DNA of 64,000 nt, taken from Gemmatimonas groenlandica (GTDB lineage: Bacteria > Gemmatimonadota > Gemmatimonadetes > Gemmatimonadales > Gemmatimonadaceae). A model generated the notes under the pieces. The model was not told where the DNA came from, did not search any database, and worked only from the letters and a program-made list of their open reading frames with translations. The stretch spans positions 2,170,001-2,234,000 of the forward strand of contig NZ_CP053085.1 in NCBI RefSeq assembly GCF_013004105.1, written 5' to 3'. Position numbers and translations under genes: made by a program. Within the stretch, counting starts at the first letter, position 1. The number at the start of each line of letters is the position of its first letter. Shown here piece by piece: positions 14,665-32,039 of this stretch.

Positions 14665-15771
14665 ATGGACCTCGCCCCCGCCGCTCCGCTCGCCCTACGC
14701 CGCATCGTGACGGTTGGTGTGGTAGTGATGGCGGTACGCGCCACCCTATTGGTGGCGGGGGCTATCCCACTGTTCGCTGGCGGGGCCCGCAACGGACTGA
14801 TCGCGACCGAGGTGGCGCGTCGTGGGGCGGAGATCATCGCCGCACTGCCCTTCATCGTCCTTACCGGATGGCTCGCCCTGCGCGACCCGCAGGTCCATCA
14901 TCGGTCGTGGCGCTGGTTCGCCGAGCGCATCGGTTGGGGATTGCTCATCTCGACGGTCCATCCGCTGGCCGTCTACTTCGTGATGAATGAGATGGCTCTT
15001 CGCTTCGGCGTTGGCACCGTATCACGACTGACTGCCCTCCAGCACGTGGCCATGGCGCTGCCCGATGCGTTCATGGTGTACGCGGCCGTGGTGCTGCTTA
15101 TCGATTGGATGCAGACGCAACAACGGCTGACAATGACGGCTCGACGCGCCGCAGATCTCCAGCGGGCAGCATCGACCGCGCAGATGCAAGCCCTTCGCGG
15201 ACGCCTCGAGCCGCACTTTCTGTACAATGCGCTCAACGCGATCGGCGACGCCGCGTACGAGAGCGCCGACAAGGCCAACATCCTGTTACGGCGTCTGGCG
15301 GGGCTGCTCAGAGCATCGTTGGCGGACCGAGAGACCCGCGACGTACCGCTCTCCCGCGAGCTCGATATTTTGCACGACTACGTCGAGCTGCAGCGCGAGC
15401 GATTCGGCGATCGCTTTTCGGTGACCGTCGAGGCCACGGAGGACGTGATGTCGTACCGCGTACCACCATTTCTCCTGCTACCGTTGGTGGAGAACGCGGT
15501 CCGTCACGGTGGGGCGGGCAGTCAGTCGGCGCATCCGGTCATCGTGCGCGCCGTGCATTGGCACGGCGCGCTCCACTTGATGGTCGAAGATCAGGGGAGC
15601 GCTGCGGAGTCCTCCCCGCGAGCGCCCGGCTTCGGCGTTGGGCTGGCCAGCACACGCGAGCGCCTGCAGCTGCTGTATGGATCGGCTGCGTCGGTGGAAG
15701 CAGGGCACGACGCCAACGGCGGATTTCGCGTTGACATCGCCATTCCTCTCACGGGGACCAACAATGATTAG
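14665..15771 (+). CDS. Sensor histidine kinase, LytS/YehU type
   Basis: A 368-residue membrane kinase. About four transmembrane helices fill residues 14-147, with no obvious periplasmic sensor domain, followed by a short coiled linker and a His_kinase domain (PF06580 type) with the phosphoacceptor in LEPHFLYNAL (H184). The HATPase region shows the N-box LVENAVRHG and the glycine-rich FGVGLASTRERLQLLYG. The stop overlaps the response regulator by eight bases, so the pair is translationally coupled and is almost certainly a cognate two-component system. The signal is unknown; relatives respond to membrane potential, pyruvate or envelope state. Confidence 0.93.
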   Translation: MDLAPAAPLALRRIVTVGVVVMAVRATLLVAGAIPLFAGGARNGLIATEVARRGAEIIAALPFIVLTGWLALRDPQVHHRSWRWFAERIGWGLLISTVHPLAVYFVMNEMALRFGVGTVSRLTALQHVAMALPDAFMVYAAVVLLIDWMQTQQRLTMTARRAADLQRAASTAQMQALRGRLEPHFLYNALNAIGDAAYESADKANILLRRLAGLLRASLADRETRDVPLSRELDILHDYVELQRERFGDRFSVTVEATEDVMSYRVPPFLLLPLVENAVRHGGAGSQSAHPVIVRAVHWHGALHLMVEDQGSAAESSPRAPGFGVGLASTRERLQLLYGSAASVEAGHDANGGFRVDIAIPLTGTNND

Positions 15772-16516
15772 TGCGTTAATTATCGATGACGAACCACCCG
15801 CCCGTCGCCAGCTTCGTCGTTTGCTGGCCGCGTGGTCAGACATTCAGGTCATCGGCGAAGCCGATTCGGCGGCGACGGCTGTGCAGCGCATCCGCGCGAG
15901 CCCGCCGGATCTGGTATTTCTCGACATCGCACTGCCGGATGGAACGGGCATCGACGTGGTCGAATCGGTCGGCCCGCTGCAAATGCCGCTCACTGTGTTT
16001 GTGACCGCCTATGATGTCCACGCCGTACAGGCCTTCGCGTTGTCGGCGCTGGACTACCTGCTCAAGCCCGTCGAGCCTGAGCGACTCCACGTCGCCCTGG
16101 AGCGGGCACGTGATCGTCTACGCGCGTCAGCACCGAATACACCCTCGGCCGAGACACTCTCGCAGCTCTCGGCGGTGCTTGGTGTCGCACCAACACGCTT
16201 TCGGCGGCGCTGGTTGGTGGATGACGGTCGACGACAGCTATTCGTGCGGACCGATACGATCGACTGGATCGAGGCCATTCGTCACGGTGTTGCCCTGTAC
16301 ATCGGCGCTGAACGGTACGAACTCCGACTCACATTGTCCCATGTGAAAGGGCAGTTGGATCCGGAGGACTTCGTACAGGTCAATCGCTCGCAGATCGTCA
16401 ATTTGCGCTCAGTGAAAGAGGTGCAGCCCTGGTCCCATGGCGACGCGCACCTGGTGCTGCAGAACGGGCGTCGCCTCAGCTGGTCGCGGCGGTTCCGTCG
16501 CGCGAGCGAACAGTAG
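15764..16516 (+). CDS. LytTR-family response regulator
   Basis: A 250-residue DNA-binding regulator that starts at the ATG 15764 inside the end of the kinase gene. Residues 1-115 are a CheY-like receiver with acidic pocket D8-D9-E10, phosphoacceptor D54 (LVFLDIALPDG) and conserved K101 (LLKPVEPERL). Residues about 145-247 are a LytTR domain (DTIDWIEAIRHGVALYI, later FVQVNRSQIVNLRSVKEV and the C-terminal LVLQNGRRLSWSRRFR). It should bind direct-repeat sites upstream of target genes. The ECF sigma gene starts 61 bases downstream on the same strand and is a possible target or read-through partner. Confidence 0.94.
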   Translation: MISALIIDDEPPARRQLRRLLAAWSDIQVIGEADSAATAVQRIRASPPDLVFLDIALPDGTGIDVVESVGPLQMPLTVFVTAYDVHAVQAFALSALDYLLKPVEPERLHVALERARDRLRASAPNTPSAETLSQLSAVLGVAPTRFRRRWLVDDGRRQLFVRTDTIDWIEAIRHGVALYIGAERYELRLTLSHVKGQLDPEDFVQVNRSQIVNLRSVKEVQPWSHGDAHLVLQNGRRLSWSRRFRRASEQ

Positions 16517-16577
16517 GCATGTCGTACTCATTGCTCCCGCTCGAAACCGGAATCTACCCGCCGCGTATTTGGGAGTC

Positions 16578-17135
16578 ATGACCGATTCTGGGCTCGAGCC
16601 GGACCTCGTGGTGCGCCTGCGAAGCGGAGACAGCGCTGCGTTCGAACGCTGTTTCCGTACGATGCACGCGCCGCTGGTCGCATTCGTCGCGCGGTACGTC
16701 GGCGACGTGGCACGCGCCGAAGACGTGGTACAGGAGCTCTTCTTTGCACTATGGCGGGATCGGGCAAAGCTGGAGATTACGGGCAGCTTGCGCGCCTATC
16801 TGTTTTCCGGAGCGCGGAATCGCGCGCTGAATGTGCGTCGCCGCGATCTGGTGGAGCGCGACTGGGAAGCAGACGAAGCGCATGCTGACGTGCGGGCCTT
16901 CCATCCGGCTCCCGAGACACCGGATGCCACGCTCGAAGCTGCAGAGCTGACGGCGCAGGTGGCGTCGGCCTTCGCGACCTTGCCCGAACGATGTCGCTTG
17001 GCGATGCACCTCCGGTGGCGCGAGGGATTGTCCTACGCCGAAATCGCTCAGGTATTGGGCATCGGGGTGAAAGGCGTCGAAAATCAGCTGGCACGCGGCC
17101 TCAAGGCACTCCGAGCGCGTCTCGCCGGCCCCTGA
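16578..17135 (+). CDS. ECF-family RNA polymerase sigma factor (FecI-like)
   Basis: A 185-residue sigma-70 family factor with only regions 2 and 4. Region 2 covers about residues 20-88 (DVARAEDVVQELFFALWRDR), and region 4 about 120-180 (LPERCRLAMHLRWREGLSYAEIA, then the recognition helix in KGVENQLARGLKALR). I use the ATG at 16578, preceded by GGGAG; a frame open back to 16437 overlaps the LytTR gene and lacks sigma features. It is followed by a FecR-type anti-sigma, an STN-TonB receptor and a DUF4249 lipoprotein, so it most likely responds to ligand binding at that receptor and directs transcription of the uptake genes. Confidence 0.94.
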   Translation: MTDSGLEPDLVVRLRSGDSAAFERCFRTMHAPLVAFVARYVGDVARAEDVVQELFFALWRDRAKLEITGSLRAYLFSGARNRALNVRRRDLVERDWEADEAHADVRAFHPAPETPDATLEAAELTAQVASAFATLPERCRLAMHLRWREGLSYAEIAQVLGIGVKGVENQLARGLKALRARLAGP

Positions 17136-17224
17136 TTGGCTCAAGACACCTCGGGATGAGGGGATTTCGCGATCTCCCGTGTCATGCTCCTGACCCCATC
17201 TGCACCCGCACGTCGCGATCCCCC

Positions 17225-18163
17225 ATGACTATCGACTCCACCTCGTCTACCTCCCCCGATGCCGATCTCCCCTCAGGGGCGTTCGGAGAGGCGGTGCGCG
17301 CCGCCGCCAGCGGATCGCCCACGGTGAGTGCGCTCGAGACGGAGCAGGCGTGGCATCGGCTGCGCGAGCGCATCGACCGTGAAATGCCAGTCGTAGTTGG
17401 CAGCATCTCATCGGCGACCAGTACTTCGCGTCGTCGCACAGAGTGGTGGCGCTTTGCGGCCGCGGCGCTGCTCGCCTTCGGCGCGGCCGGTGCATGGCGG
17501 CGTCTCGCCCCCACGCGCGATGCGGTGAGCGCCCCGCTGGGACAACGGGTCGCCGTCACGTTGCCAGACGGGAGTTCGATCACGCTGGCCGCGGGGAGTT
17601 CGGCATCGTGGATACGCGGCTTTCGCGGCGCGCAACGCGAGGTGACACTCGACGGCGAGGCGTATTTCGAGGTAGTGCACGACGGCATGAAGCCATTTCT
17701 CGTGCGCTCGCGGGATGGCATCGCACAGGATGTCGGCACGCGTTTCATCGTTCGTGCCTGGCCTGAGCTGCCGCAGGTGGAAGTGTTGGTGCAGGAAGGC
17801 GTCGTCGCGTTCACCGACAGTACCTCTGCCCGCACGACCGCTGTCGAACGGCGCGTGCAACTTCATGCGGGGCAGCGCGGGCAACTGGACCGGGATGGCC
17901 TTGTCACCGTCATGACCGCTGACAGCGCCGCATTCAGTTGGCTGACCGGCACGTTGGCGTTCGCCGATATGCCCGCACATGAGGCACTGGCCGTCATTGG
18001 CCGATGGTACGGCGTCGCCATTACAGTGCATCCTGCGCTCGCGCAGCGTCGGCTCACGGCCCGCTTTGTTAGTCAACCTTTACCGCAATTGCTGGATGCG
18101 CTCGCACTCGCGTTGGGCGCTTCCGTCGAACGTCGCGGAACGCAGATCACGCTGACTCCCTGA
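17225..18163 (+). CDS. FecR-type anti-sigma/sigma-regulator membrane protein
   Basis: A 312-residue inner-membrane protein. The N-terminal cytoplasmic part (1-70) would hold the ECF sigma factor, one transmembrane helix lies at about 72-92 (WWRFAAAALLAFGAAGAW), and the periplasmic part carries the FecR domain (LPDGSSITLAAGSSASW, EVTLDGEAYFEVVHDGMKPF, VGTRFIVRAW) plus a C-terminal STN-like DUF4974 segment (FADMPAHEALAVIGRWYGV). The ATG at 17225 was chosen because upstream extension overlaps the sigma gene. The gene stops three bases before the receptor gene. It transmits the state of the receptor to the sigma factor. Confidence 0.93.
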   Translation: MTIDSTSSTSPDADLPSGAFGEAVRAAASGSPTVSALETEQAWHRLRERIDREMPVVVGSISSATSTSRRRTEWWRFAAAALLAFGAAGAWRRLAPTRDAVSAPLGQRVAVTLPDGSSITLAAGSSASWIRGFRGAQREVTLDGEAYFEVVHDGMKPFLVRSRDGIAQDVGTRFIVRAWPELPQVEVLVQEGVVAFTDSTSARTTAVERRVQLHAGQRGQLDRDGLVTVMTADSAAFSWLTGTLAFADMPAHEALAVIGRWYGVAITVHPALAQRRLTARFVSQPLPQLLDALALALGASVERRGTQITLTP

Positions 18164-18166
18164 CCC

Positions 18167-20917
18167 ATGACATTTCGAATGGCCCTCACCCTCTGGCTAC
18201 TCGCCACAGGGAGCCCGCTGGCTGCGCAATCGCCATTGCCATCGCGAGCAGTCATACCGAGCACGCCAAGCGCATTCGTTGCACTCGACAGTGGCAGCAC
18301 GGCCCGTGGTGCTCTAATCACGCCGGTCACCGTAAACGTGCAGGATCGTCCGCTCGCACAGGTACTCGATGACATCACACGGCAAGCCCGGGTGTCGTAT
18401 GTCGCTGACCGTGCGCTGCCGGGCCTTGATCGCCGCGTGACGCTCGCGGTGACACAATTGTCCGCTCGCGAGGCACTCTTACACGTGGTGGCGGGTTCAC
18501 CGCTGCAGATCCTGGTTGGACCGACCGGTCAGCTTGTGCTGGCGCGCCGCACAAAGCCCTCGACGGCGCCAGACACTCCGGCACGTCGTGAAACACTGCG
18601 GCTATCGGGATTCATCCGCAGCGTGAGCTCCAACGAAGTCATACGCCACGCGGTCCTGCTGGTCGATGATGAAGCGACACGGCGAGAGAGTAATGAAGAG
18701 GGGTTCTATGTCCTGCTCCTCGAAGGTGGACTGCATCGTGTGCGGGTACGCGCCATCGGGTTTGCCCCGATGGACACGACGATCAATTTGATCAGCGCCA
18801 CCACGACCGATCTCGTGCTACGACCGCGTACGGTGGTGCTTTCCGCCATGCGCGTGCAAGCCACCAAAGCCGAGCGTGGCGATCTCGATTCCAGGCTCCC
18901 GGATATGAGCGTGACGCGGCTCGATCTGGCGATCGCGAAGCGCATACCTCCATTGCTGGGAGAAGTCGATCCCCTGCGCACCCTCACGCTACTGCCTGGA
19001 GTCGCCACCACCAGCGACGCGTCCACCGCGTTCAGTGTGCGCGGCGGCAGCGTCGACCAGAATCTCATCCTGCTGGACGAATCCACGATCTACAATCCGT
19101 CGCACATCCTTGGCTTTCTGTCCACCTTCAATGCCGATGCCGTCGACGATGTGACGCTGTACAAGGGCGCTATTCCTGCGAAGTATGGTGGCCGCCTGTC
19201 GAGTGTGGTGGACGTGAGACAGCGCGAAGGCAACGCACGGGAGTTCGCGGGCAACGCTTCGATTGGACTGCTCGCGAGCCGCGCCATCGTTGAAGGACCG
19301 CTCCCTTTCCACCGTGGCAGTTACATGGTGGCGGGCCGAAGGTCCTATGCAGATGCGTTTCTCCGCCTCGCCAACGACTCGACTATCAAAGATAACGCCG
19401 CCTACTTCTACGACGTGAATGCCAAGGTCAATATACGAATTGGTATGACCGGCTCCGTCATGCTGTCGACATACACGGGACGGGACAAGTTCACTCAGCC
19501 AAGCGAGAGCTTTGCGGTGGGGTGGGGGAACCGGTCTACGACGCTGCGCTGGAATCAGGCCTTCGGTCGACTTTTTTCGAAGATCGCCAGCACCAGAAGC
19601 GACTACGATTACCGTCTCGAATTCCGGCTTGCCCCCAGTGACTCGGCCCGATGGATCGCCGGTATTCATAGCAGCAATCTCAAGATTGACGAGACGCTCC
19701 GCCTCACGGATCACCAGACCCTCGAGTTCGGCGGTGAGATCATCGACCACGTGTTCCGACCGGGGGATGTGACACCGCGTGGCGACACCACGTTGATTCG
19801 GCGGCGCACGATCGAGCCGCGCTACGCGCTTGCCAGCGCGCTGTACCTCGGCCATGAGATCGAACACGGCACGCGCATCGGTATTCGGTACGGTGTGCGC
19901 TATGCCGCGTTCAGTCGTAACGGACCCATGACGCGCTATCGCTATACGAATAATGCGCCTGTGACCTACAACGGCGCACTCGGGCGCTACGAACCGGGGA
20001 CGTTGCTGGACAGCGTACGCATTACCGGTAGCCGCTCCCAATTTCGATACGACGGCTTTGAGCCGCGTGCCTCGATACGATTCACGCTCACCGAGGGCAG
20101 CAGTCTGAAGGCGAGCTACGCGCGTACGCAGCAGTTCCTCCAGCTGGTGTCGAACACGAACTCTCCGACACCGCTCGATGTGTGGGAGCCGGCCGGCGAG
20201 TTCATTCAACCGCAACAGGGGAATCAGTACGCGCTCGGCTACAGCAGCCGACGCGGCGCGTACGAGTTCACGGCTGAGACGTACTACAAAACGGCAGCGC
20301 ACGTCGTCGACTACATCGACGGTGCGGATGTCGTCTTGAACCCGCGACTCGAGACGCTGTTGGTGCAGGGTGAAGGGCGCGCGTACGGACTCGAGCTCTT
20401 TCTTCGGCGAAGCAGCGGTCGCGTGAGCGGCTGGGCCAGTTACACGCTCGCGCGCGCCGAGCAGCGCTTTCCCGTGCCACCGCGCGCCGGCGCCACGAGC
20501 GGCGGCGGTGTGAACGGTGGCGAGTGGTACGTCTCACCATTCGACAAGACCCACAATCTTTCGCTGGTCGGTGTGTATGCATGGAGGCCGAAGTGGACCG
20601 TGGGGTCGACCTTCATCTTCGCGACTGGACTTCCCACGACCCTACCGCAATCGCGGTATGTGATCGACGGCTTCCTGATTGCCGAGTATGGGTCTCGCAA
20701 CGGCGAGCGCCTACCGAATTACCATCGCCTGGACGTGAGCCTCACACGATCGCTGCGCCGCGGCGAGCTGCAGTTTGGCCTACTCAACGTGTACAACCGA
20801 TTCAATGCGCAGTCGTTGCGCGTGCGCCAGCAGGAGAAGAATGCCATGGTGGCCGAAGCGGTGCAGACATCGATCTTCGGCATCGTGCCGAGCATCAATT
20901 ACGTCTTCAAATTCTGA
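18167..20917 (+). CDS. TonB-dependent transducer receptor with STN domain
   Basis: A 916-residue outer-membrane receptor. Signal peptide about 1-21; STN/secretin-like signalling domain about 53-126 (NVQDRPLAQVLDDITRQA, VTQLSAREALLHVVAGSPL); carboxypeptidase-regulatory-like domain about 143-225; plug about 255-370 (LPGVATTSDASTAFSVRGGS, DQNLILLDESTIYNPSH, YGGRLSSVVDV); then the beta-barrel ending in the aromatic NYVFKF. The STN domain identifies it as a transducer that signals to the FecR protein upstream. The layout matches FecA-like surface signalling, although the regulatory and plug sequences look more like Bacteroidetes receptors. Ligand unknown: iron chelate, peptide and glycan are all possible. 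Confidence 0.94.
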   Translation: MTFRMALTLWLLATGSPLAAQSPLPSRAVIPSTPSAFVALDSGSTARGALITPVTVNVQDRPLAQVLDDITRQARVSYVADRALPGLDRRVTLAVTQLSAREALLHVVAGSPLQILVGPTGQLVLARRTKPSTAPDTPARRETLRLSGFIRSVSSNEVIRHAVLLVDDEATRRESNEEGFYVLLLEGGLHRVRVRAIGFAPMDTTINLISATTTDLVLRPRTVVLSAMRVQATKAERGDLDSRLPDMSVTRLDLAIAKRIPPLLGEVDPLRTLTLLPGVATTSDASTAFSVRGGSVDQNLILLDESTIYNPSHILGFLSTFNADAVDDVTLYKGAIPAKYGGRLSSVVDVRQREGNAREFAGNASIGLLASRAIVEGPLPFHRGSYMVAGRRSYADAFLRLANDSTIKDNAAYFYDVNAKVNIRIGMTGSVMLSTYTGRDKFTQPSESFAVGWGNRSTTLRWNQAFGRLFSKIASTRSDYDYRLEFRLAPSDSARWIAGIHSSNLKIDETLRLTDHQTLEFGGEIIDHVFRPGDVTPRGDTTLIRRRTIEPRYALASALYLGHEIEHGTRIGIRYGVRYAAFSRNGPMTRYRYTNNAPVTYNGALGRYEPGTLLDSVRITGSRSQFRYDGFEPRASIRFTLTEGSSLKASYARTQQFLQLVSNTNSPTPLDVWEPAGEFIQPQQGNQYALGYSSRRGAYEFTAETYYKTAAHVVDYIDGADVVLNPRLETLLVQGEGRAYGLELFLRRSSGRVSGWASYTLARAEQRFPVPPRAGATSGGGVNGGEWYVSPFDKTHNLSLVGVYAWRPKWTVGSTFIFATGLPTTLPQSRYVIDGFLIAEYGSRNGERLPNYHRLDVSLTRSLRRGELQFGLLNVYNRFNAQSLRVRQQEKNAMVAEAVQTSIFGIVPSINYVFKF

Positions 20918-20919
20918 TT

Positions 20920-21804
20920 ATGCCTGTCAACTCAACGCTGCGTGCGATGCGTGGGCTCTCCAGCGTACTCGTGCTCGCCACCCTAGGCGCCTGTGAGAAG
21001 GTCGTAGAGCTCGATGTGGCCGATGGTCCGGTTCGCCTCGTGGTGGAGGGGCGACTCGAGTCTCCTCTCGAACCCGCGAGCGTCACCCTGCTCGGCCGTC
21101 AATCGCTGCGCCTGACTACGACCTCGCCGTACTTCAGTAACAGCCCGCAGCCGCCCGCGCGTGGAGCGGTCGTGACGGTCCGCGATGATCTTGGTCGCGT
21201 GGTCGCGTTTCCGGAGTCGAGCACGCCAGGAACGTATCGAACCGACAGTCTGGTGGCGCGCGCTGGCCGCACGTACACATTGCGCATCGAGTGGCAAGGC
21301 GACCGTTACGAGGCCGTAGAGAGCTTGAGCAGTGTCGCGCCGATCGACTCGCTGTATTTCATGCCGCGCCCAAAGAAGGATCCGGCCATCGACGGGCTGC
21401 GCGCCACGATCGATTTGCGCGACCCGCCGGTCACGCGCAACTACTACTTATGGGATCAGTATGTGGACGGCGAGCGCCTCGTCTCCCCAGACACCGTGAT
21501 TCGCTATCGCGTGGTGACCAATGACGAATTCTATGAGGGACGACGCGTTCGAGCCTATCAGCCCTTCGATGGACGCGCGGTACGACGCCGGCAGGAGGTG
21601 CTCGTTCGACAGTACTCCATCTCCGAGGCGGTGTGGCGCTACTACGACGCGCTCAACCGTCAGGTGGACGGCGATGGGTCCCCGTTCGGCGTGCCGCCGT
21701 CGAGTGTGCGTGGGAACGTCGCCAATCTCACGTCACCGTCGAAGCCGGCGTTGGGATACTTCGTCGCGAGCGAGGTGTCGGAGCGACGTGCACGCGTGCC
21801 CTGA
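20920..21804 (+). CDS. DUF4249 family outer-membrane lipoprotein
   Basis: A 294-residue predicted lipoprotein with lipobox LGAC (C25), starting at the ATG 20920, two bases after the receptor stop. The sequence CEKVVELD followed by LVVEGRLESPLEPASVTLLG, then GAVVTVRDDLGRVVAF and GRTYTLRIEWQGDRYEAVE, is characteristic of DUF4249. Such proteins are encoded next to TonB receptors, mainly in Bacteroidetes, and probably cap the receptor or bind substrate, by analogy with SusD. It is the last gene of the sigma/anti-sigma/receptor unit. The frame stays open further upstream, but that extension overlaps the receptor gene in another frame and is not used. Confidence 0.88.
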   Translation: MPVNSTLRAMRGLSSVLVLATLGACEKVVELDVADGPVRLVVEGRLESPLEPASVTLLGRQSLRLTTTSPYFSNSPQPPARGAVVTVRDDLGRVVAFPESSTPGTYRTDSLVARAGRTYTLRIEWQGDRYEAVESLSSVAPIDSLYFMPRPKKDPAIDGLRATIDLRDPPVTRNYYLWDQYVDGERLVSPDTVIRYRVVTNDEFYEGRRVRAYQPFDGRAVRRRQEVLVRQYSISEAVWRYYDALNRQVDGDGSPFGVPPSSVRGNVANLTSPSKPALGYFVASEVSERRARVP

Positions 21805-24110: not shown

Positions 24111-25514
24111 ATGAGACCATTCACGTGTGCGATTTATTATGAGCTTGGTGATACCGCTTCGCCGCGACACCTTCACGCGCATCAGGCATTGTGCAATGCC
24201 GGCATCGACATGCTACCGCCGCGTGCCGATACGGCCTCCACGTCTGTCCGCCTGCTTGGCTTCGATGAAGTAAATGACGAAGTGCTCTCGCGCCTCTCGC
24301 GTCTTGCCGCACCGGGCACGTGGCGAGTACTCGCGATCGCCTTCGCGCCGTTTGCCCATCCTCGCACGGCGTGGCAGTTGCTGGAACATGGCGCCGCCGA
24401 TGTGGTGGTGTGGCGCAACGACAGCGACGGCGCGCGGGAGGTCGCGGCGCGTCTCGCCCGCTGGACCGACGTCGATGCCATCGTGACGTCGGACGTGGTG
24501 AAGCGCAATCTCGTGGGACGCAGCCCCGCATGGCTCCGCACCATCCGCGAAGTCGCCGAGATCGCGGCCTACACCGATGTGCCACTACTGCTCGGCGGAG
24601 AAACGGGCACGGGGAAGGAGCTCATCGCGCGCCTCGTACACACGCTCGACCGCCGCCCCACCAAGCGCGACCTGGTGCTGGTGGACTGCACGACGCTCAT
24701 GCCCGAGTTGTCGGGGAGCGAGCTGTTCGGCCACGAGCGCGGCGCCTTTACCGGTGCAGTCGCATCGCGCGACGGGGCGTGCGCGCTGGCCAACGGCGGC
24801 ACGCTCTTCCTCGATGAAATCGGCGAATTGCCGCTGGCTCTGCAGGCCGAACTGTTGCGCGTCGTGCAGGAAGGCACCTACAAGCGGGTCGGATCGAACA
24901 GCTGGCAGCAGGTGAAGTTCCGCCTTGTGTGCGCTACGCATCGCGACCTCACAGCCGAGGTGCAGCGCGGCACCTTCCGCCGTGACCTGTTCTATCGCAT
25001 CGCTGGCATCACCTGCACGCTTCCCACGCTCGCGGAACGCACGGACGACATCATCCCGCTGGCGGAGCACTTCATCCGGCAGGTGCGCCCCGACCTCGAC
25101 ACCGACCGCGTGGAGATGGACGATGCGGTGCGCGACTATCTGGTGGGCCGCGCATATCCCGGGAATGTGCGCGATCTGCGGCAGCTCGTGACCCGCATGA
25201 TCGCTCGCCACCCGGGGGCGGGCCATCTTTCCGTGGGTGACATTCCCATCGACGAGCGTCCGGTGGCGAGTGACACCGTGGGTGACTGGCGCGGCGATGC
25301 GTTCGCGCGTGGCATCCGGCTCGCGCTCGCCGCAGGCGCGAGTCTGCGCGAGATCAGCAGTGAGGCAAGTAGTATGGCGATTCGTATTGCCATGGACGAA
25401 TCGGCATCCCTTCGCAGTGCAGCGCGCCGACTCGGCGTCTCAGCGCGTGCGCTTCAGCTCCGGCGCGCGAGTGAGCAAACGAGTACTCCCCCGAGCATGC
25501 GTCCGCGCCGCTGA
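24111..25514 (+). CDS. Sigma-54-dependent transcriptional activator
   Basis: A 467-residue enhancer-binding protein. Residues 1-130 look like a degenerate receiver domain (RVLAIAFAPF, WQLLEHGAADVVVWRND) without a clear phosphoacceptor pocket. The AAA+ domain follows: Walker A GGETGTGKE, the sigma-54 contact loop GAFTGA, Walker B GGTLFLDEIGELP, and R-finger region FRRDLFYRI. The C terminus has a Fis-type helix-turn-helix (ASLRSAARRLGVSARALQLRR). The ATG at 24111 has GGAG eight bases upstream; ATG 24105 and a longer frame to 24003 are weaker. It converges on, and overlaps by 75 bases, the last gene of an operon whose first gene has a -24/-12 promoter, which makes it the likely activator of that operon. 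Confidence 0.93.
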   Translation: MRPFTCAIYYELGDTASPRHLHAHQALCNAGIDMLPPRADTASTSVRLLGFDEVNDEVLSRLSRLAAPGTWRVLAIAFAPFAHPRTAWQLLEHGAADVVVWRNDSDGAREVAARLARWTDVDAIVTSDVVKRNLVGRSPAWLRTIREVAEIAAYTDVPLLLGGETGTGKELIARLVHTLDRRPTKRDLVLVDCTTLMPELSGSELFGHERGAFTGAVASRDGACALANGGTLFLDEIGELPLALQAELLRVVQEGTYKRVGSNSWQQVKFRLVCATHRDLTAEVQRGTFRRDLFYRIAGITCTLPTLAERTDDIIPLAEHFIRQVRPDLDTDRVEMDDAVRDYLVGRAYPGNVRDLRQLVTRMIARHPGAGHLSVGDIPIDERPVASDTVGDWRGDAFARGIRLALAAGASLREISSEASSMAIRIAMDESASLRSAARRLGVSARALQLRRASEQTSTPPSMRPRR

Positions 25515-26294
25515 ATCGTGGCCGATCGCGATGGTCTGCCGTCGTGCGCGGAGCAGCCGCAGCAGGTTGCCCCCCAGTACCAGCTGCTTATCCTGCGGTG
25601 AAAGCGGCAGGGCGAGCACCTTGGCGAGTTCTACCGCCGGATGCAACCATGGCCCGTCGCTCCCGAAGAGCACCTTATGTGCTCCGGCTTCACGAACGGC
25701 CTGCAGCAAGAGGTCGAAGCGCCGCACCCCCGAGGTATCGGTGTAGACATTCGTGTGCCGCGACAGAAAGCCGAGAAAGGCGACCTGGGCGCGCCAGTCG
25801 TCGGCGAACGATCCGAGATGCGGAATGATGAAGTTCACCGTGGGATACTCGGTGGCGAACAGTTCGATCTGTGCCACCTCGCCAGTGACATCGTAGAGCA
25901 CCGGCAGGCGCAGTTCGCGCGCCACGTCGCACACTTCGCGCGTGATGGGCGCATCGTGCCGGTGCACCTTGATGCCGCGGAAGCGCTCGCGCTCCACGAA
26001 GTGCCGCACCATGGGCAACACGCGTCCGCGGTCACGCGCTGGATGCACAAACACGAAACCCGTGAGTCGATCGGGCGCCTGACGCACGAGGTCGGCCACC
26101 TGCGCATTCGCCGCGGCGTAATCGCTGTTGAAGGCGGCGAAGATGACGGTGTGCACGATACCACAGGCCTTGGCCCGCGCCTGGTGTTCCACGATCGGCG
26201 CCGTCGTATCCCACGGACCGGTGAGGCCGTCGCCGGTGCCGGCGTGACAGTGGCAGTCGATGATGGGCCCCGAAACCTCCGTGAGCGGGCGCAT
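25440..26294 (-). CDS. Amidohydrolase-2 family metal hydrolase
   Basis: A 284-residue cytoplasmic TIM-barrel hydrolase of the Amidohydro_2 group. The first metal motif is IIDCHCHAG (H-x-H), a mid-barrel histidine sits in NFIIPHLGSF, and the final aspartate in VLFGSDGPWLHP. Related enzymes are decarboxylases or lactone/amide hydrolases. I use the ATG at 26294, whose A overlaps the previous TGA (TGATG); two GTG codons just upstream (26297, 26300) are alternatives. It is the last of six tightly spaced genes. Its 3' end overlaps the convergent sigma-54 activator by 75 bases. The basic tail after the barrel (RTHARGSTRLLTRAPELKRTR) lies in that overlap and may be a late extension. Confidence 0.85.
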   Translation of the reverse strand: MRPLTEVSGPIIDCHCHAGTGDGLTGPWDTTAPIVEHQARAKACGIVHTVIFAAFNSDYAAANAQVADLVRQAPDRLTGFVFVHPARDRGRVLPMVRHFVERERFRGIKVHRHDAPITREVCDVARELRLPVLYDVTGEVAQIELFATEYPTVNFIIPHLGSFADDWRAQVAFLGFLSRHTNVYTDTSGVRRFDLLLQAVREAGAHKVLFGSDGPWLHPAVELAKVLALPLSPQDKQLVLGGNLLRLLRARRQTIAIGHDSAARTHARGSTRLLTRAPELKRTR

Positions 26295-27064
26295 CACCAC
26301 TCTCGAAAACTCTTTCCGACTACCCCTTGGCGCGTGCGCATGCCGCCGCGTGGCCCCACCTGCGTGAGTGTCGCGCCTTTCTTGCCGACCGTGAACGGTT
26401 TGATCGACGAACGATTGGTGAGCTTCACCGGACTGGTGGTGATGAGCGCCGCTTCCACATCACGTCGCACGGATGCGCTTCCGGCCGACCGTGTCTCCGT
26501 GCCGGTCTTGTTGATGGTACCCACGCGTACCTTGTACGGCGACGGATCGATCGCCAACTGCGTTAGTGTCTCGAGCCGCCCGAGCCACCGGCGTTGCACG
26601 TTCGACGACTGCCCCACGTAGAGTGGCCGTCCAGCGCGCAGCACCATGTACACGCCGGGAGTACTCGGCAGCTGGCTCGCGTTGGCAAGAGGGATGGGCT
26701 GGCTCCACGCCACCTGGGCGTGAAACGTGCGCTGCACCTCCTCGAGCATTTCGTACAGTTCGTCGGAGGTTCGCGCGACGATCTCGTCCTGCGGATGCTC
26801 CTCGGCACCGTCCGGCGTAGGCGGAGGCGCATCATCGTACGCACCGTCAGGCGCGTCACGGCGCGCGCTGTCACCGCCGCCGTACACACACGGACAGGCG
26901 TTGTCGCCCCAGATGATATTCTGCACGTAGGTGCGACGCCGACGCTTCGGGCGGGGGGGACGAACCGGGCGAAAGCGCCCGCGTCGCGCACGGCCGAATT
27001 CGTCTTCGTGCTGCGGCGCGAGGCCGGTCGCGGCCAAATGCTGCGGAGTGAGAATCGTCGTCAC
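26294..27064 (-). CDS. GIY-YIG nuclease-like protein
   Basis: A 256-residue protein. The first 100 residues are low-complexity and basic, then acidic (PRPKRRRR near 38-44). The C-terminal half holds a GIY-YIG-type domain: GVY at 137-139, YVG at 149-151, the following R158 in NVQRRW, and a downstream glutamate E204 in RDVEAALI, the four expected active-site positions. Domain length is close to the UvrC/endonuclease-type core. It starts with GTG at 27064, overlapping the previous stop by four bases (GTGA). A nuclease next to PLP and protease-like genes is unusual; the domain may act on DNA or serve another role. The activity is inferred from motifs only. Confidence 0.8.
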   Translation of the reverse strand: MTTILTPQHLAATGLAPQHEDEFGRARRGRFRPVRPPRPKRRRRTYVQNIIWGDNACPCVYGGGDSARRDAPDGAYDDAPPPTPDGAEEHPQDEIVARTSDELYEMLEEVQRTFHAQVAWSQPIPLANASQLPSTPGVYMVLRAGRPLYVGQSSNVQRRWLGRLETLTQLAIDPSPYKVRVGTINKTGTETRSAGSASVRRDVEAALITTSPVKLTNRSSIKPFTVGKKGATLTQVGPRGGMRTRQGVVGKSFREW

Positions 27065-28164
27065 AAGTGACTCCCAGCGGGCTTCATCCCGCGAGTGAAA
27101 AGACGGTGCGCCGTACCCACACGGCGCGCGGCACGCACCAGCGCCGCCGGGCGGTGCGAGGTGGAAATGAGAAACGTGAGCTGCACGCCGTCGCCGCAGC
27201 GCGAGCGCTGGCGCACCACATGGATGTCATGCGCCGCTAGATAGGCATGCACGTGCGACGCCTGTCCAGCATCCATCACCGGTGTGGACTGCACAGGAAA
27301 AAGCGTGGGGGTCTGCAGGGGCACGCCAGCGCTGCGCATGGCCGTGCGGAAGGTGGTGACGTTCGTCGCAAGACGCGCGCGCAGTTCGTCTCCCTGCGTG
27401 GTATTGACGGCCAGCGCCGCCTTGGCCGCCAGCACGCTCGCTATCGCTGGCGGACTGCAGTGCACACGCGTCTCGCTCTGCTGCCGGAACGCCTGAACCA
27501 CCTGGCGCTCGCCGCTCAGCGACGCCACCGGTACGCCGAACGCTTTCGCGAGTGACGTGATGAGTACCACCCCAGCCCTGGCGTCCAGCGAGCTCCGTTG
27601 CAGGATGCCCCCACCGCCTCGGCCATACGGCGCCGCCGCATCGGGTGTGTGCCCCAGCACACCCAGCGCCTGCGTATCGTCGATCACCAGCAGCGCACCG
27701 TACGACCGTGCGATCTGTTGGTAGGGGTCTAACGGCAGCACGCGCCCGCAACCCGTGCAGTACCCGTCGAGCACCACCACCGCCTGTTGCGCGCGTGGTC
27801 CGAGCTGCCGCAGCATGCGCGCGAGGGCGTCCGGCTCGAAGTGAGGCGCCGTGTGCACCGTGGCGCCTTTCGCTCGCGCATAGTCGGCCGCCCACTGGGC
27901 GATAGCGTATGCGCCGGCGTCGAGGATCAGTGCGCGACCATCGCCCGCCAAGCCGCCAAGCAGGTCCCACATGAGATGCAGCGTGGAGGGCGCCAGCACA
28001 CCGTCTGCACACCCCTGCAGCTGCGCGAGACTCGACGCGACCGTGCCGACGACGGGGGCCTCCGCCAGCGCGGCCGGCACCCCCGTCGTAAGACTCTCCC
28101 ATCCGGTCAGCAGCCCGGCCGGATGGCGAAAGCCGAGGTACAGTGCCGACGTGAGGTCGAGCAC
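27061..28164 (-). CDS. PLP-dependent AONS-like (alpha-oxoamine synthase/aminotransferase fold I) enzyme
   Basis: A 367-residue fold-type-I PLP enzyme, closest in shape to 8-amino-7-oxononanoate synthase and 2-amino-3-ketobutyrate ligase, which condense an amino acid with an acyl-CoA. The cofactor aspartate is in LLVIDDTQALGVLG (D162/D163) and the Schiff-base lysine is K207 in TSLAKAFG. The N terminus MLDLTSALYLGFRHP lacks the usual longer AONS leader, and no biotin genes are nearby, so a role in biotin synthesis is unlikely. It begins 12 bases after the 525-residue orphan and overlaps the GIY-YIG gene by four bases. Substrate unknown; a modifying role within this operon is an inference. Confidence 0.85.
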   Translation of the reverse strand: MLDLTSALYLGFRHPAGLLTGWESLTTGVPAALAEAPVVGTVASSLAQLQGCADGVLAPSTLHLMWDLLGGLAGDGRALILDAGAYAIAQWAADYARAKGATVHTAPHFEPDALARMLRQLGPRAQQAVVVLDGYCTGCGRVLPLDPYQQIARSYGALLVIDDTQALGVLGHTPDAAAPYGRGGGGILQRSSLDARAGVVLITSLAKAFGVPVASLSGERQVVQAFRQQSETRVHCSPPAIASVLAAKAALAVNTTQGDELRARLATNVTTFRTAMRSAGVPLQTPTLFPVQSTPVMDAGQASHVHAYLAAHDIHVVRQRSRCGDGVQLTFLISTSHRPAALVRAARRVGTAHRLFTRGMKPAGSHL

Positions 28165-28176
28165 GACGCACTCCTT

Positions 28177-29754
28177 TCACGTTCGCTCCCGCCGCCCACG
28201 CAGCCGCACCGTCGTCATGGCGCTCGTCGCCGCGGACAACGCACCAACGGTCTCACCATTACCGCCCATGCCGTTGCCCATGCTGTAGCGGCGCTGCTCA
28301 GCCAACCGGCGCTGCAGCAGTTCGCTCGGCATGGTGGCGTCGGCATAGTCGAGCCCTGCGAGATCGACTCCCGTAACCACCCGGTACGCATGCAGGTAGC
28401 TCTGCACCTCCGGCCGCCAGAAGCGCGCCCACGTGCGCGCCACCTGTTGGTTGTTGGTGTTCATCCAGGCGTAGTAACGGATGGACAGCAGCAGCCGTTC
28501 ACCGTACGTGCCGAGATCGCGGAAGTGCAACACGCTGGTGTCGCTCCACCCCTGCACGCGCTTCATCGCGTCCACGCCGCCCATCCAGGGTTCGGGATAC
28601 GGCATCATCCAACGCCCACGCAGGAAGTCGCGCATCTCCGGCCGCGCCAGCAGCCACTGTTCCATCAGCATCTCGGCACGCGCCGTCCACGGCAGATCCC
28701 GGAACTGATTGTGTGCGCCCTCGGCGAGCACGAGATGTACTTCCTTGAGCGCCTGCAGAATGGGGAACGCATCGGCCGTCACCGTGGCATCGTCATCCTG
28801 CAGGTAGAACTGCGCACAGCGACGCAACAGCTCATGGAACGCTTCGATGAAGCGACTGCGCGAGTCGGCCGGCGAGAGCCCTTCGGTGGCCTTGCCCACC
28901 AGCGACAGCCCGTAGTGATGCTGGTACTCGTACGCCCGGCGCCGTACCGACAAACGCTGCTGCTCATCATTCACGTAGCCCCACAGCAACGTGCTGAGCG
29001 GACGCAATGGGGCGAGCTCCAGCTCCGCCAGCGGATCGTTCGCGCCACCAGGGCGCCGCACGTTCTGGAAGCGACGCGCGATGGCGTTGAGCGTCTGCGA
29101 AAGCATCCCCTCTTCGTGCCAGTACGACCAGATCAGTTCGAGGAGACACGGCAGCGATGCGTCCGTCGCGGCGATGAACTGGCAAGGACCGCCACCTTGT
29201 GCGCTCGAGCTGGCGCCCAGATGCGGCAGAATGGCGTCGAGATAACTGGTGTGATGGCTACTCAGATACCGCTGCAGCGAATTGAGACCGAGATCATCGG
29301 CGCCGATACCGTATCCACGCGCTTCGGCCTCCTCTGTCGCGCCTTCGGTGAGCCCGACGCCGGACTCCTTCAGACCGCCGAGCCACTTGTTGCGCTCGAG
29401 CATCGTCGCGAGCGCCCCGTTCGACATATCCTGGCCGTCCCACGTACCCACGTTGGTGAGCAGGAACGCTTCGGTCGCGGTTTTGAGCAGCTCGTACGGA
29501 TCGAGACCGCTCTGCACCTGAATGCCGGTGATTCTCGCCGACTCGTCGTCTGCGTTGCACAGCACGCGATTGATGAACCGGTTGTAGCTGTCAAACGAGA
29601 GCGTCTCCGACTGGGTCAGTGTATGCACCCACAGCACCGCGGCATCGACATCCTCGAGTTCCGTTCGCGCGAGGCGCACGGTATACAGCGGTTGAATGCC
29701 GTTGCCGGCAGGCGCCTTCTTTGCATCGGCTAGCCCTTTCTTGGGATCGGTCAT
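28177..29754 (-). CDS. Large protein of unknown function in sigma-54 operon
   Basis: A 525-residue, probably cytoplasmic protein, mostly helical and without signal peptide or membrane segment. I use the ATG at 29754, which overlaps the TGA of the metalloprotease-like gene by four bases (ATGA); the longer frame to 29868 lies inside that gene. Notable conserved-looking stretches are LIWSYWHEEGMLSQTLNAIARRFQN, rich in aromatic residues, FRDLPWTARAEMLMEQWLLARPEM, and a C-terminal Gly/Met/Asn segment (SMGNGMGGNG). I do not recognise a domain. Position in the middle of the operon suggests it is a core component. Confidence 0.8.
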   Translation of the reverse strand: MTDPKKGLADAKKAPAGNGIQPLYTVRLARTELEDVDAAVLWVHTLTQSETLSFDSYNRFINRVLCNADDESARITGIQVQSGLDPYELLKTATEAFLLTNVGTWDGQDMSNGALATMLERNKWLGGLKESGVGLTEGATEEAEARGYGIGADDLGLNSLQRYLSSHHTSYLDAILPHLGASSSAQGGGPCQFIAATDASLPCLLELIWSYWHEEGMLSQTLNAIARRFQNVRRPGGANDPLAELELAPLRPLSTLLWGYVNDEQQRLSVRRRAYEYQHHYGLSLVGKATEGLSPADSRSRFIEAFHELLRRCAQFYLQDDDATVTADAFPILQALKEVHLVLAEGAHNQFRDLPWTARAEMLMEQWLLARPEMRDFLRGRWMMPYPEPWMGGVDAMKRVQGWSDTSVLHFRDLGTYGERLLLSIRYYAWMNTNNQQVARTWARFWRPEVQSYLHAYRVVTGVDLAGLDYADATMPSELLQRRLAEQRRYSMGNGMGGNGETVGALSAATSAMTTVRLRGRRERT

Positions 29755-31100
29755 GCTGTCAGCCTCCTTCGTATGGTTGAAGTGCGATCTGCCGTCTTGG
29801 GCTGCAGCCGGTTCGGCATGCGCGCGGAGCAGATGTCGGTCATGTCGATGGCCCCGCGCAGTGCCCAATTGGTGAGCAAATGCGCGACGACGCGGCTTTC
29901 CACTTCGGGCGTGATCGCGCCATCTGCGCGCGCCTGGCCCAGCGCCGCGAACACCAGCGACGGCGTGGTCTTCCGCATCTCGAGTGGTGCGGACCCGAAT
30001 CGCTGATAGAGCTTTTCGAGTTGCGCCGGTGCGCGGTCTGGTGTGGCCAACGCCGCGCCAATGCTGCGCCCACCCAACGACGGTGGACGATGCTCGACGA
30101 ACGCCTTGGCAGCGTCGGGCAGTGTGCGCACCAGCGTCTGGAGCAGCGCGGCGTACTCGTCCGGGTGATCAGCGGGCGGATAGAGCGCGCGCCACGTATC
30201 GGCAATCGCGCTCCACTGTGGGTGCGGATACAGCTGCGCCCCCATCGCGGCTGAGAGCAGCACGCGTATCCACGGAATGGGGTGTGGCTCGTCGATTTCC
30301 TTGCGAAACACGAACGGCCGCGGAAGCGATACCACGCCCATCAGCCCCAGCGGTGCGGCAATGCCCACTCGCGCCACACTCCACAGATCCGCCACGATTT
30401 CCGAGCACCAGCGATCCCACGCCTGCCACGCCACTGCGTCGGGGCCCGCGTTCACCGCGCGCGCCTGCAGTGCGGGGCGTAACGATTCCACCAATTCAAG
30501 CAGCGCGGCGCCCTGATGCCCGACTTCGTGTACCAACGAACTCGCGATACCGGCACCCACCATGCGCTCGCGAGGCACCTTGATGATGGCCACGGGATTT
30601 TCCCCGCCACCCGGCAATCGCGTACGCGCCCGGCGAATCGCGGCGCCCTGCCCTCGCTGCAGGTAGCACACCACGGGTGGTGCTTCGTACGGCATACCGG
30701 GCACCTGCAACGCGTCCTTGGCGAACACGTCGAGCCCGCCGAGAAAGACACCCGTTTCGTGCTCCGATCGCTGCGTGACCACTTCGGAGAAGAGATCGAA
30801 CTGCGTGAGCACGGCGTTGAATCGCAAGCGCAGAAACACGAACCGCTGCTGCGCCTGTGCCGGTGTTGCGGCGCGTCCCTCGGCGCCGAGCAGCCACGCG
30901 AGGAACTCGCTCACCTTGCGGCGCACTTCGTGTCGGCCCGCCGACATGTGTCGCTCGATCGCCGCCTGCGCTTCCACGGAGAACGACGCCGCGACCACCA
31001 TGGTCTCGGTGAGCGCGAACGGCCGCACGCGATGCGCGCGTGTGAGCAACGCGCGCGCTTCGAGCTCGATCAGCTGCTTGGGCGCGAGAAACGCCGACAC
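29751..31100 (-). CDS. HEVGH-motif metalloprotease-like protein
   Basis: A 449-residue protein with a zincin signature: HEVGH at residues 191-195 (context ASSLVHEVGHQGAALLEL) and, 39 residues later, E234 in WCSEIVADLW, an ExxxD arrangement that can supply the third zinc ligand as in gluzincins. No signal peptide was seen, so it would act in the cytoplasm unless exported by another route. The C-terminal third is helical (YPPADHPDEYAALLQTLVRTLP). It starts four bases after the stop of the glycine-zipper protein gene, so it may process or handle that protein. The peptidase family is not recognised, and the activity is inferred from the motif. Confidence 0.8.
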   Translation of the reverse strand: MSAFLAPKQLIELEARALLTRAHRVRPFALTETMVVAASFSVEAQAAIERHMSAGRHEVRRKVSEFLAWLLGAEGRAATPAQAQQRFVFLRLRFNAVLTQFDLFSEVVTQRSEHETGVFLGGLDVFAKDALQVPGMPYEAPPVVCYLQRGQGAAIRRARTRLPGGGENPVAIIKVPRERMVGAGIASSLVHEVGHQGAALLELVESLRPALQARAVNAGPDAVAWQAWDRWCSEIVADLWSVARVGIAAPLGLMGVVSLPRPFVFRKEIDEPHPIPWIRVLLSAAMGAQLYPHPQWSAIADTWRALYPPADHPDEYAALLQTLVRTLPDAAKAFVEHRPPSLGGRSIGAALATPDRAPAQLEKLYQRFGSAPLEMRKTTPSLVFAALGQARADGAITPEVESRVVAHLLTNWALRGAIDMTDICSARMPNRLQPKTADRTSTIRRRLTA

Positions 31101-31104
31101 GGGA

Positions 31105-31866
31105 TCAAATACCCGTCAGGATGATGCGGCGCCCACGACGGTACCACGTGCCGCGTTGCGGGCGGGCACCGTGGCCGACGGACGCACCATTCCCCGCGGT
31201 GCCGATCACCGACGGCGCACGCCCGCTCATCTGCGCGGCAAGTCCCGGAGCGTGCATGCGGGCCGCTTGCGAGAGTGCCGCCTGCACCGCACGCTGTGGC
31301 GACGCGTTCTGCGGCGCGGCAACGGCACCCTGCGTGGCCGCACCGGCGAGACGCACGTAACGACGCGCGACTTCGAACTCCTGATCTTCGTGGCTCAGCC
31401 CTTCGAGCTCGAGCCCGAACGCGCTGCCCGCCGCCGACGCGAGCTTGCCACCGATCACACCACCAATGCCCGGCACGATGAGATTCCCGAGGGCCGCACC
31501 CGCCATCGGCAGCGCGGTCTTGGCGACTTTCTTGAGTGCACTGCCCAGGGCTTGTCCGATCGGGCCGCGCACGACCTTGCCAAGTGAGCGCCCGGCGCTC
31601 TTGATCAACTTGCCGAGGAACTGATTCAGCTCGGCTTCGTTGGTGATCTCCAGTAGTTCGGCCGCGAGTTCGGCCTCCATCTCTTCGGAGAAGACACTTT
31701 CGTACTCACCCTCACCTTCGAACTCGAAGCTCTCCATTTCCTGCGCGCCGTACTCGCCGAACGTTTCGCCGCTGTACTCGTTGGAGTATTCGGTTTCGTA
31801 GCCCGTGCTTTCAAGCGCGTCGATGCCACGCGCGATCTGCTGCTGCATGCGATCCATGTCGTGCAT
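31105..31866 (-). CDS. Acidic/aromatic and glycine-zipper protein, first gene of sigma-54 operon
   Basis: A 253-residue protein with a striking layout. Residues 21-72 are very rich in Glu with Tyr/Phe (YETEYSNEYSGETFGEYG, FEFEGEGEYE). Residues 83-152 form an alternating small/hydrophobic, Gly-rich stretch (FLGKLIKSAGRSLGKVV, LGSALKKVAKTALPMAGAAL, GIGGVIGGKLASAAGSAFG) like a glycine zipper or membrane-inserting helix pair. Then come GLELEGLSHEDQEFEVARRYVRLAG and a basic C-terminal end (WYRRGRRIIL). No signal peptide. The start ATG 31866 is preceded by AGGGGG at 31872-31877. An excreted or membrane-active effector, or a scaffold, would fit. I recall similar E/Y-rich zipper proteins in other phyla but no assigned function. 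Confidence 0.83.
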   Translation of the reverse strand: MHDMDRMQQQIARGIDALESTGYETEYSNEYSGETFGEYGAQEMESFEFEGEGEYESVFSEEMEAELAAELLEITNEAELNQFLGKLIKSAGRSLGKVVRGPIGQALGSALKKVAKTALPMAGAALGNLIVPGIGGVIGGKLASAAGSAFGLELEGLSHEDQEFEVARRYVRLAGAATQGAVAAPQNASPQRAVQAALSQAARMHAPGLAAQMSGRAPSVIGTAGNGASVGHGARPQRGTWYRRGRRIILTGI

Positions 31867-31871
31867 GAGGT

Positions 31872-31877
31872 CCCCCT
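31872..31877 (-). promoter_or_regulatory. Ribosome-binding site for the glycine-zipper gene
   Basis: On the minus strand the sequence AGGGGG precedes the ATG at 31866 by five bases. It supports that start and suggests strong translation of the first gene of the operon. Confidence 0.65.
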
Positions 31878-31920
31878 GACAGGTGAAGGTCGATGGCTCG
31901 TGTCGGCCACGCCGGGGACT

Positions 31921-31938
31921 AAAGCACGAGTGGTGCCA
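31921..31938 (-). promoter_or_regulatory. Sigma-54 (-24/-12) promoter of the six-gene operon
   Basis: Read on the minus strand, the sequence is TGGCACC-ACTC-GTGCT, matching the RpoN consensus TGGCACG-N4-TTGCW at all fixed positions but two, with the essential GG (31937/31936) and GC (31925/31924) exactly 12 bases apart. Transcription would start near 31912, giving a leader of about 46 bases before the ATG at 31866. An RpoN activator is encoded at the other end of the same operon. Confidence 0.78.
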
Positions 31939-31980: not shown

Positions 31981-32039
31981 GCGAAGCGGGCTTCGCGGGC
32001 GACGCGAGCTTCGCGGGGGGAGTGCGAAGGAGATTTCGC
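31981..32039. promoter_or_regulatory. Three tandem dyads GCGAA-N6-TTCGC (candidate activator-binding sites)
   Basis: Copies lie at 31981-31996 (GCGAA-N6-TTCGC), 31999-32014 (GCGAC-N6-TTCGC, one mismatch) and 32024-32039 (GCGAA-N6-TTCGC). Their centres are 18 and 25 bases apart and fall about 76, 94 and 119 bases upstream of the predicted sigma-54 start site, the usual distance for enhancer-binding proteins. They could instead be a GC-rich hairpin repeat or contribute to ending the convergent-side transcript of the oxidoreductase gene. Confidence 0.65.

What the first reader, a model, noticed from the sequence alone, without database searches (positions are those of the whole stretch)
31921..31938. 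Sigma-54 promoter directly upstream of the glycine-zipper gene
Minus strand TGGCACC-ACTC-GTGCT has GG and GC exactly 12 bases apart and mismatches the consensus TGGCACG-N4-TTGCW at two fixed positions. It lies about 58 bases before the ATG with a good ribosome-binding site between. The only sigma-54 activator gene in the window is at the other end of the operon.
Basis: partly seen in the sequence, partly recalled or inferred. Interest (0 to 1): 0.78.

Follow-up and report, generated by a model that had tools for sequence, protein, structure and literature searches.

The report
Sigma-54 switch for uncharacterised effector-like operon
The short sequence is very probably a real sigma-54 promoter, run by an activator gene at the far end of the same operon through two matching palindromes upstream, and the same on-switch sits in front of the same uncharacterised, effector-like operon in bacteria of about twelve phyla.

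Summary
TGGCACCACTCGTGCT (minus strand, 31938-31923) is the best sigma-54 matrix match in the 64-kb window (rank 1 of 127,970 positions). The genome has rpoN and about 14 strong activator (bEBP) genes, one of them in the window.

Alone, such a site is not significant: about 140 of equal score are expected by chance in this 5.18-Mb genome. Comparison decides. Seven Gemmatimonadota orthologues of the operon carry a -24/-12 element at the same place. Of 75 loci with enough upstream DNA, from about 12 phyla, 63 have TGGCA(C/T)-N5-NTGC downstream of a palindrome pair. Dinucleotide shuffles gave 0.5 on average, the opposite strand none.

Two palindromes, CGAA-N6-TTCG, mostly 40-43 bp apart, lie upstream of the site in 72 of 75 loci; window positions are 31981-31996 and 32024-32039. 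The pair occurs once in the window's genome, in all 8 sampled Gemmatimonadota genomes with the operon, and in 10 of 387 without it.

The activator is conserved wherever the sequence reaches past the operon. The controlled operon is uncharacterised and looks like a polymorphic-effector cassette. The promoter is ordinary in mechanism; the unit it controls is the notable part.

The parts
31923..31938 (-). -24/-12 sigma-54 promoter element TGGCAC-CACTC-GTGCT
   Evidence: conserved in orthologues
31912..31912 (-). predicted transcription start (12 bp downstream of the C of GC)
   Evidence: inference from -24/-12 geometry; not mapped
31981..31996 (.). proximal palindrome GCGAAGCCCGCTTCGC, candidate activator site (centre about -76)
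32024..32039 (.). distal palindrome GCGAAATCTCCTTCGC, candidate activator site (centre about -119), 43 bp from the proximal one
31999..32014 (.). third, imperfect palindrome GCGAAGCTCGCGTCGC (one mismatch) between the two; no equivalent identified in the relatives
31871..31876 (-). ribosome-binding site GGGGGA
   Evidence: sequence
31105..31866 (-). first operon gene: acidic/aromatic leader + glycine zipper + C-terminal tag GTWYRRGRRIILTG (P0001)
   Evidence: orthologues
29751..31100 (-). P0002, predicted zinc metallopeptidase of gluzincin type (HEVGH ... SEIVAD invariant)
   Evidence: 80 relatives; no Pfam match
28177..29754 (-). P0003, conserved protein of unknown family; ATG at 29754 overlaps the P0002 stop
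   Evidence: no Pfam match
27061..28164 (-). PLP enzyme, 8-amino-7-oxononanoate synthase-like
26294..27064 (-). P0004, accessory-slot gene: R/P-rich leader + weak GIY-YIG nuclease-like domain
   Evidence: sub-threshold Pfam
25440..26300 (-). amidohydrolase (PF04909), last operon gene
24111..25514 (+). dedicated sigma-54 activator (bEBP): unassigned N-terminal domain, AAA+ with GAFTGA loop, C-terminal Fis-like helix-turn-helix; convergent, overlapping the amidohydrolase 3' end by 75 bp

Best explanation
31938-31923 is the -24/-12 element of a sigma-54 promoter that drives the operon 31866->25440. In the proposed mechanism the convergent activator gene at 24111-25514 makes a bEBP whose N-terminal domain senses an unknown signal. 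The bEBP binds the two palindromes centred at about -76 and -119, oligomerises, loops to the closed complex of RNA polymerase and sigma-54 at the -24/-12 element, and opens it by ATP hydrolysis through the GAFTGA loop. Without the signal the operon is silent. Shown by comparison: the -24/-12 element, the palindrome pair, the syntenic activator, rpoN. Inferred: that this activator binds these palindromes, the start site, and the signal.
For: Top sigma-54 matrix score of the window. rpoN present. Eight of eight Gemmatimonadota loci keep (T/C)GGCA(C/T)-N5-NTGC and two CGAA-N6-TTCG palindromes. Across about 12 phyla 72 of 75 loci have the pair, 69 of them spaced 40-43 bp, against 1 pair in 1.35 Mb of control sequence, itself near a second glycine-zipper gene. 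63 of 75 have the promoter downstream of the pair; in 69 testable regions 60 do, against 0.49 in dinucleotide shuffles and 0 on the reverse strand. The pair occurs once in the own genome, in 8 of 8 genomes with the operon and 10 of 387 without. The activator is found in every locus whose sequence reaches past the amidohydrolase, convergent in all but one, 50-52% identical within the phylum with conserved HTH and AAA+, and its divergence tracks that of P0002 (Mantel r 0.82, 0 of 999 permutations). No sigma-70-like site in the upstream region.
Against: No transcript start, no binding data. The site alone is not rare genome-wide, and its first -12 base is G, not T; known sigma-54 promoters such as glmZ of Salmonella share this (PMC3844500). 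In four relatives of another family the first base is C instead of T and matrix scores are low. Twelve of 75 loci lack a promoter match under the rule used. The genome has about 13 other bEBPs that could act on the site.
Confidence: 0.93

Rival explanations
1. The -24/-12 match is a chance resemblance and the operon has another promoter.
For: About 108 sites with at most one mismatch to TGGCAC-N5-TTGCW exist in this genome, fewer than its reversed control; several of the best lie inside genes.
Against: Positional conservation upstream of orthologous operons with a conserved activator and palindrome pair; no sigma-70-like site upstream.
Confidence: 0.04
2. The promoter is sigma-54 dependent, but another of the genome's bEBPs drives it, and the palindromes bind a different regulator such as a repressor.
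For: About 14 strong bEBP genes in the genome; bEBP-UAS pairing was not measured.
Against: This activator is linked to the operon and co-diverges with it across phyla, and the pair tracks the operon.
Confidence: 0.07
3. The palindromes are RNA hairpins (terminator or attenuator for the upstream oxidoreductase gene) rather than protein sites.
For: GCGAAG-CCCG-CTTCGC can form a 6-bp hairpin, about 100 bp past the oxidoreductase stop.
Against: No intrinsic terminator found; the arms CGAA/TTCG stay fixed in sequence while the centre varies, with 40-43-bp spacing in most loci, which fits DNA recognition.
Confidence: 0.02

Closest known systems
sigma-54 (-24/-12) promoters with paired enhancer sites and a dedicated bEBP (NtrC/PspF/NorR type)
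   Same: GG-N10-GC core, AAA+ activator with GAFTGA and Fis-like HTH, inverted repeats within the usual 70-150 bp upstream (range from PMC3844500)
   Different: Palindrome GCGAA-N6-TTCGC, usually in pairs 42 bp apart; activator N-terminal domain matches no Pfam family; controls an operon without a described function
RtcR (CARF-AAA-HTH activator)
   Same: Best PADLOC/NCBIfam profiles over AAA+ and HTH
   Different: Match does not cover a CARF domain; score far below the NCBIfam RtcR cut-off (283 against 650 bits)
Polymorphic toxin / effector cassettes
   Same: Constant core with a slot of exchangeable enzymes (peptidoglycan-binding amidase, M23, M74, glucosaminidase, trypsin, M35, GIY-YIG, HNH, PT-VENN)
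   Different: No secretion apparatus or immunity gene looked for or identified here; core of metallopeptidase, PLP enzyme, amidohydrolase and glycine-zipper proteins not found described in the papers searched

Membership tests
sigma-54-dependent promoter | GG and GC dinucleotides 10 bp apart in a TGGCAC-N5-TTGCW context | tested here: met
   rank 1 in the window; core kept in orthologues
sigma-54-dependent promoter | rpoN in the genome | tested here: met
sigma-54-dependent promoter | Enhancer (UAS) inverted repeats about 70-150 bp upstream | tested here: met
   palindromes centred about -76 and -119; protein binding not tested
sigma-54-dependent promoter | Transcript 5' end about 12 bp downstream of GC; RpoN binding | not testable with these tools
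   needs RNA and protein experiments
sigma-54-dependent promoter | IHF site between UAS and promoter (optional) | tested here: inconclusive
   WATCAA-N4-TTR is perfect in six of seven Gemmatimonadota relatives and degenerate in the window (read); weakly enriched overall (16 of 63 with one mismatch against 4.8 in shuffles)
bacterial enhancer-binding protein | AAA+ PF00158 domain, Walker A, GAFTGA loop, C-terminal HTH | tested here: met
   HTH Pfam matches are weak, helix pattern read from the alignment
RtcR | N-terminal CARF domain | tested here: not met
   no CARF match; PADLOC and NCBIfam matches begin at residue 162-170 of P0005
polymorphic effector/toxin system | constant part with exchangeable catalytic domains | tested here: met
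   accessory slot survey
polymorphic effector/toxin system | cognate immunity genes and export route | not tested
   no search made

The most novel reading that the evidence does not exclude
The promoter is the on-switch of an unrecognised cross-phylum effector or export system. In this reading glycine-zipper proteins and exchangeable peptidoglycan- or nucleic-acid-attacking enzymes share an acidic-aromatic leader and/or a C-terminal tag (GRWxRRGxxIxLxG) that routes them through a core of metallopeptidase, unknown protein P0003 and PLP enzyme, expressed only when the dedicated bEBP senses a signal.
Probability: 0.4. Interest if true: 0.82.

Novelty: new member of a known kind. Interest (0 to 1): 0.6.

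Why it matters
The promoter mechanism is classical, but the comparison shows one regulatory unit (paired palindrome, -24/-12 element, dedicated activator) kept in front of the same uncharacterised operon from Gemmatimonadota to Nitrosomonas, Janthinobacterium, Bradyrhizobium, Chloroflexota, Planctomycetota, Nitrospira and Myxococcota. The palindrome pair is a DNA signature for finding the operon. The activator and promoter give a practical handle: switch the operon on in a laboratory strain and ask what it makes. Cultivated carriers include Janthinobacterium and Nitrosomonas.

Tried and rejected
Searching the genome collection with the glycine-zipper protein alone found nothing; the metallopeptidase alignment found 80 loci. 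AlphaFold models of P0002 (mean pLDDT 55) and P0003 (37), built from only 8 and 6 sequences, were too poor for a fold search. Phage origin: no P0002 match in phage records; only a weak tape-measure match for P0001. RtcR membership rejected. Recent horizontal transfer: the P0002 tree needs 14 changes of phylum label, the least possible being 11, so phyla are mostly clustered and transfer is not demonstrated; distribution is patchy (11 of 395 phylum genomes matched, 8 of them strongly). Autoregulation of the activator by the same palindromes: none found upstream of its gene in the window. Literature searches returned no paper on this operon; only open-licence papers were searchable.

Full report
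What is there. The minus strand carries TGGCACCACTCGTGCT at 31938-31923, in ...GACTTAGCCTTTGGCACCACTCGTGCTTTAGTCC.... The expected start is 31912. A GGGGGA ribosome-binding site and ATG 31866 follow.

The site alone. The degenerate consensus gives fewer hits in the window than shuffled sequence, and the genome holds 108 sites within one mismatch of TGGCAC-N5-TTGCW; of ten better matches looked at, several lie inside long reading frames. With a matrix from 24 promoters listed for Salmonella (PMC3844500) the site is the best of 127,970 window positions, 12.6 bits against 10.5 for the next, but about 140 equally good sites are expected by chance in the genome. Position matters: 0.003 are expected in 200 bp upstream of one gene. 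The GTGC variant of the -12 half also occurs in the glmZ promoter of that list.

Requirements. The genome has one sigma-54 gene (E 7.5e-63) with the RpoN box ARRTVAKYR. It has 14 strong sigma-54 activator domains, one in the window. The window activator (24111-25514, plus strand) has an AAA+ domain, the GAFTGA loop and a C-terminal HTH. Its first 130 or so residues match no Pfam family. It is convergent with the operon and overlaps its last gene by 75 bp.

The operon. Six genes follow with gaps of at most 12 bp or short overlaps: glycine-zipper protein; P0002, with invariant HEVGH...SEIVAD, read as a gluzincin-type metallopeptidase from motif alone; P0003, no family; a PLP enzyme like 8-amino-7-oxononanoate synthase; P0004, weakly GIY-YIG-like; an amidohydrolase.

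Relatives in the phylum. Among 148 genomes of the family, three of another genus carry the glycine-zipper gene at 51-59% identity, with P0002, P0003, PLP enzyme, amidohydrolase and a convergent activator in the same order. Two of them are the same contigs as records titled Gemmatimonadetes and Gemmatimonadaceae, which places the window in that phylum. Four more genomes of another family carry P0002 at about 60%. All eight loci have (T/C)GGCA(C/T)-N5-NTGC upstream of the first gene, most preceded by ACTTA, and two palindromes CGAA-N6-TTCG about 42 bp apart. In the window these are GCGAAGCCCGCTTCGC (31981-31996) and GCGAAATCTCCTTCGC (32024-32039), centred at about -76 and -119, with a third imperfect copy between. 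Six of the seven relatives have a perfect IHF-type sequence between palindromes and promoter; the window's copy is degenerate.

Across phyla. An alignment of P0002 found 80 loci in the genome collection, in 12 phylum-level groups by record title. Gene order is the same, and an activator is present in every locus whose sequence reaches past the amidohydrolase; in one (L068) it lies elsewhere. Of 75 loci with at least 250 bp upstream, 72 have the palindrome pair (69 spaced 40-43 bp, three 31-32). The rest of the same loci, 1.35 Mb, hold one pair, itself near a second glycine-zipper gene. 63 of 75 have the promoter downstream; in 69 testable regions 60 do, against a mean of 0.49 in dinucleotide shuffles and none on the reverse strand. 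The site logo is TGGCA(C/T)G-N4-TTGC. Distances from the proximal palindrome to the promoter cluster at 44-48, 55-59, 67-69 and 110-128 bp. The steps of about 11 bp among the short spacers suggest helical phasing, but the loci are related and that was not corrected for; the window (57) fits the second class. The motif rule was set after seeing the first eight loci. Two of the 75 (L043, L044) repeat loci of those eight; the others were not used to set it, but they are related to one another and are not independent trials.

Genome-scale specificity. The pair pattern was searched in 395 genomes of the phylum. All eight genomes with a strong P0002 match have it; 10 of the other 387 do, at a background level; the window's genome has exactly one.

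What the operon may do. Between PLP enzyme and amidohydrolase lies a slot of variable genes. Of 68 scanned, 22 have peptidoglycan-binding domains; others are amidase, M23, M74, glucosaminidase, trypsin, M35, M20, OmpA, GIY-YIG, HNH and PT-VENN. Many begin with an acidic-aromatic leader followed by an Arg/Pro-rich stretch, as P0004 does in part. A C-terminal tag, GRWxRRGxxIxLxG, ends 120 of 131 glycine-zipper frames and 18 of 95 accessory frames, while only 145 of 1,614 long plus-strand frames in all loci carry it. ORFs were picked mechanically, so some accessory frames are not genes. This resembles polymorphic effector cassettes. Export route, targets and immunity were not examined; function is an inference, at about 0.4.

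Verdict. Mechanism is classical sigma-54 control; new here are the enhancer pair, its tie to this activator and operon, and the breadth of conservation. Not shown: transcript start, RpoN or activator binding, signal, and that no other bEBP acts here.

Noticed in passing
window 31105-31866 and glycine-zipper/accessory genes of L041-L120: Shared C-terminal tag GRWxRRGxxIxLxG on most glycine-zipper proteins and some accessory enzymes of the operon; a candidate sorting or processing signal.
   Followed up: partly
slot between PLP enzyme and amidohydrolase, L043-L118; window 26294-27064: Exchangeable cargo genes with peptidoglycan-, protein- and nucleic-acid-attacking domains behind an acidic-aromatic, Arg/Pro-rich leader.
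   Followed up: partly
L047 9094-9136: A second palindrome pair between the first two glycine-zipper genes, possibly a second promoter of the same kind.
   Followed up: no
upstream regions of Gemmatimonadota relatives (L017, L019, L021, L037, L038, L039): Perfect IHF-type WATCAA-N4-TTR between palindromes and promoter; degenerate in the window.
   Followed up: partly
L068 3651-4943: The activator gene lies upstream of the operon instead of convergent at its end, the only such case among 55.
   Followed up: no
window 14665-21804: Histidine kinase, then ECF sigma factor, FecR, TonB-dependent receptor and DUF4249 protein in a row.
   Followed up: no
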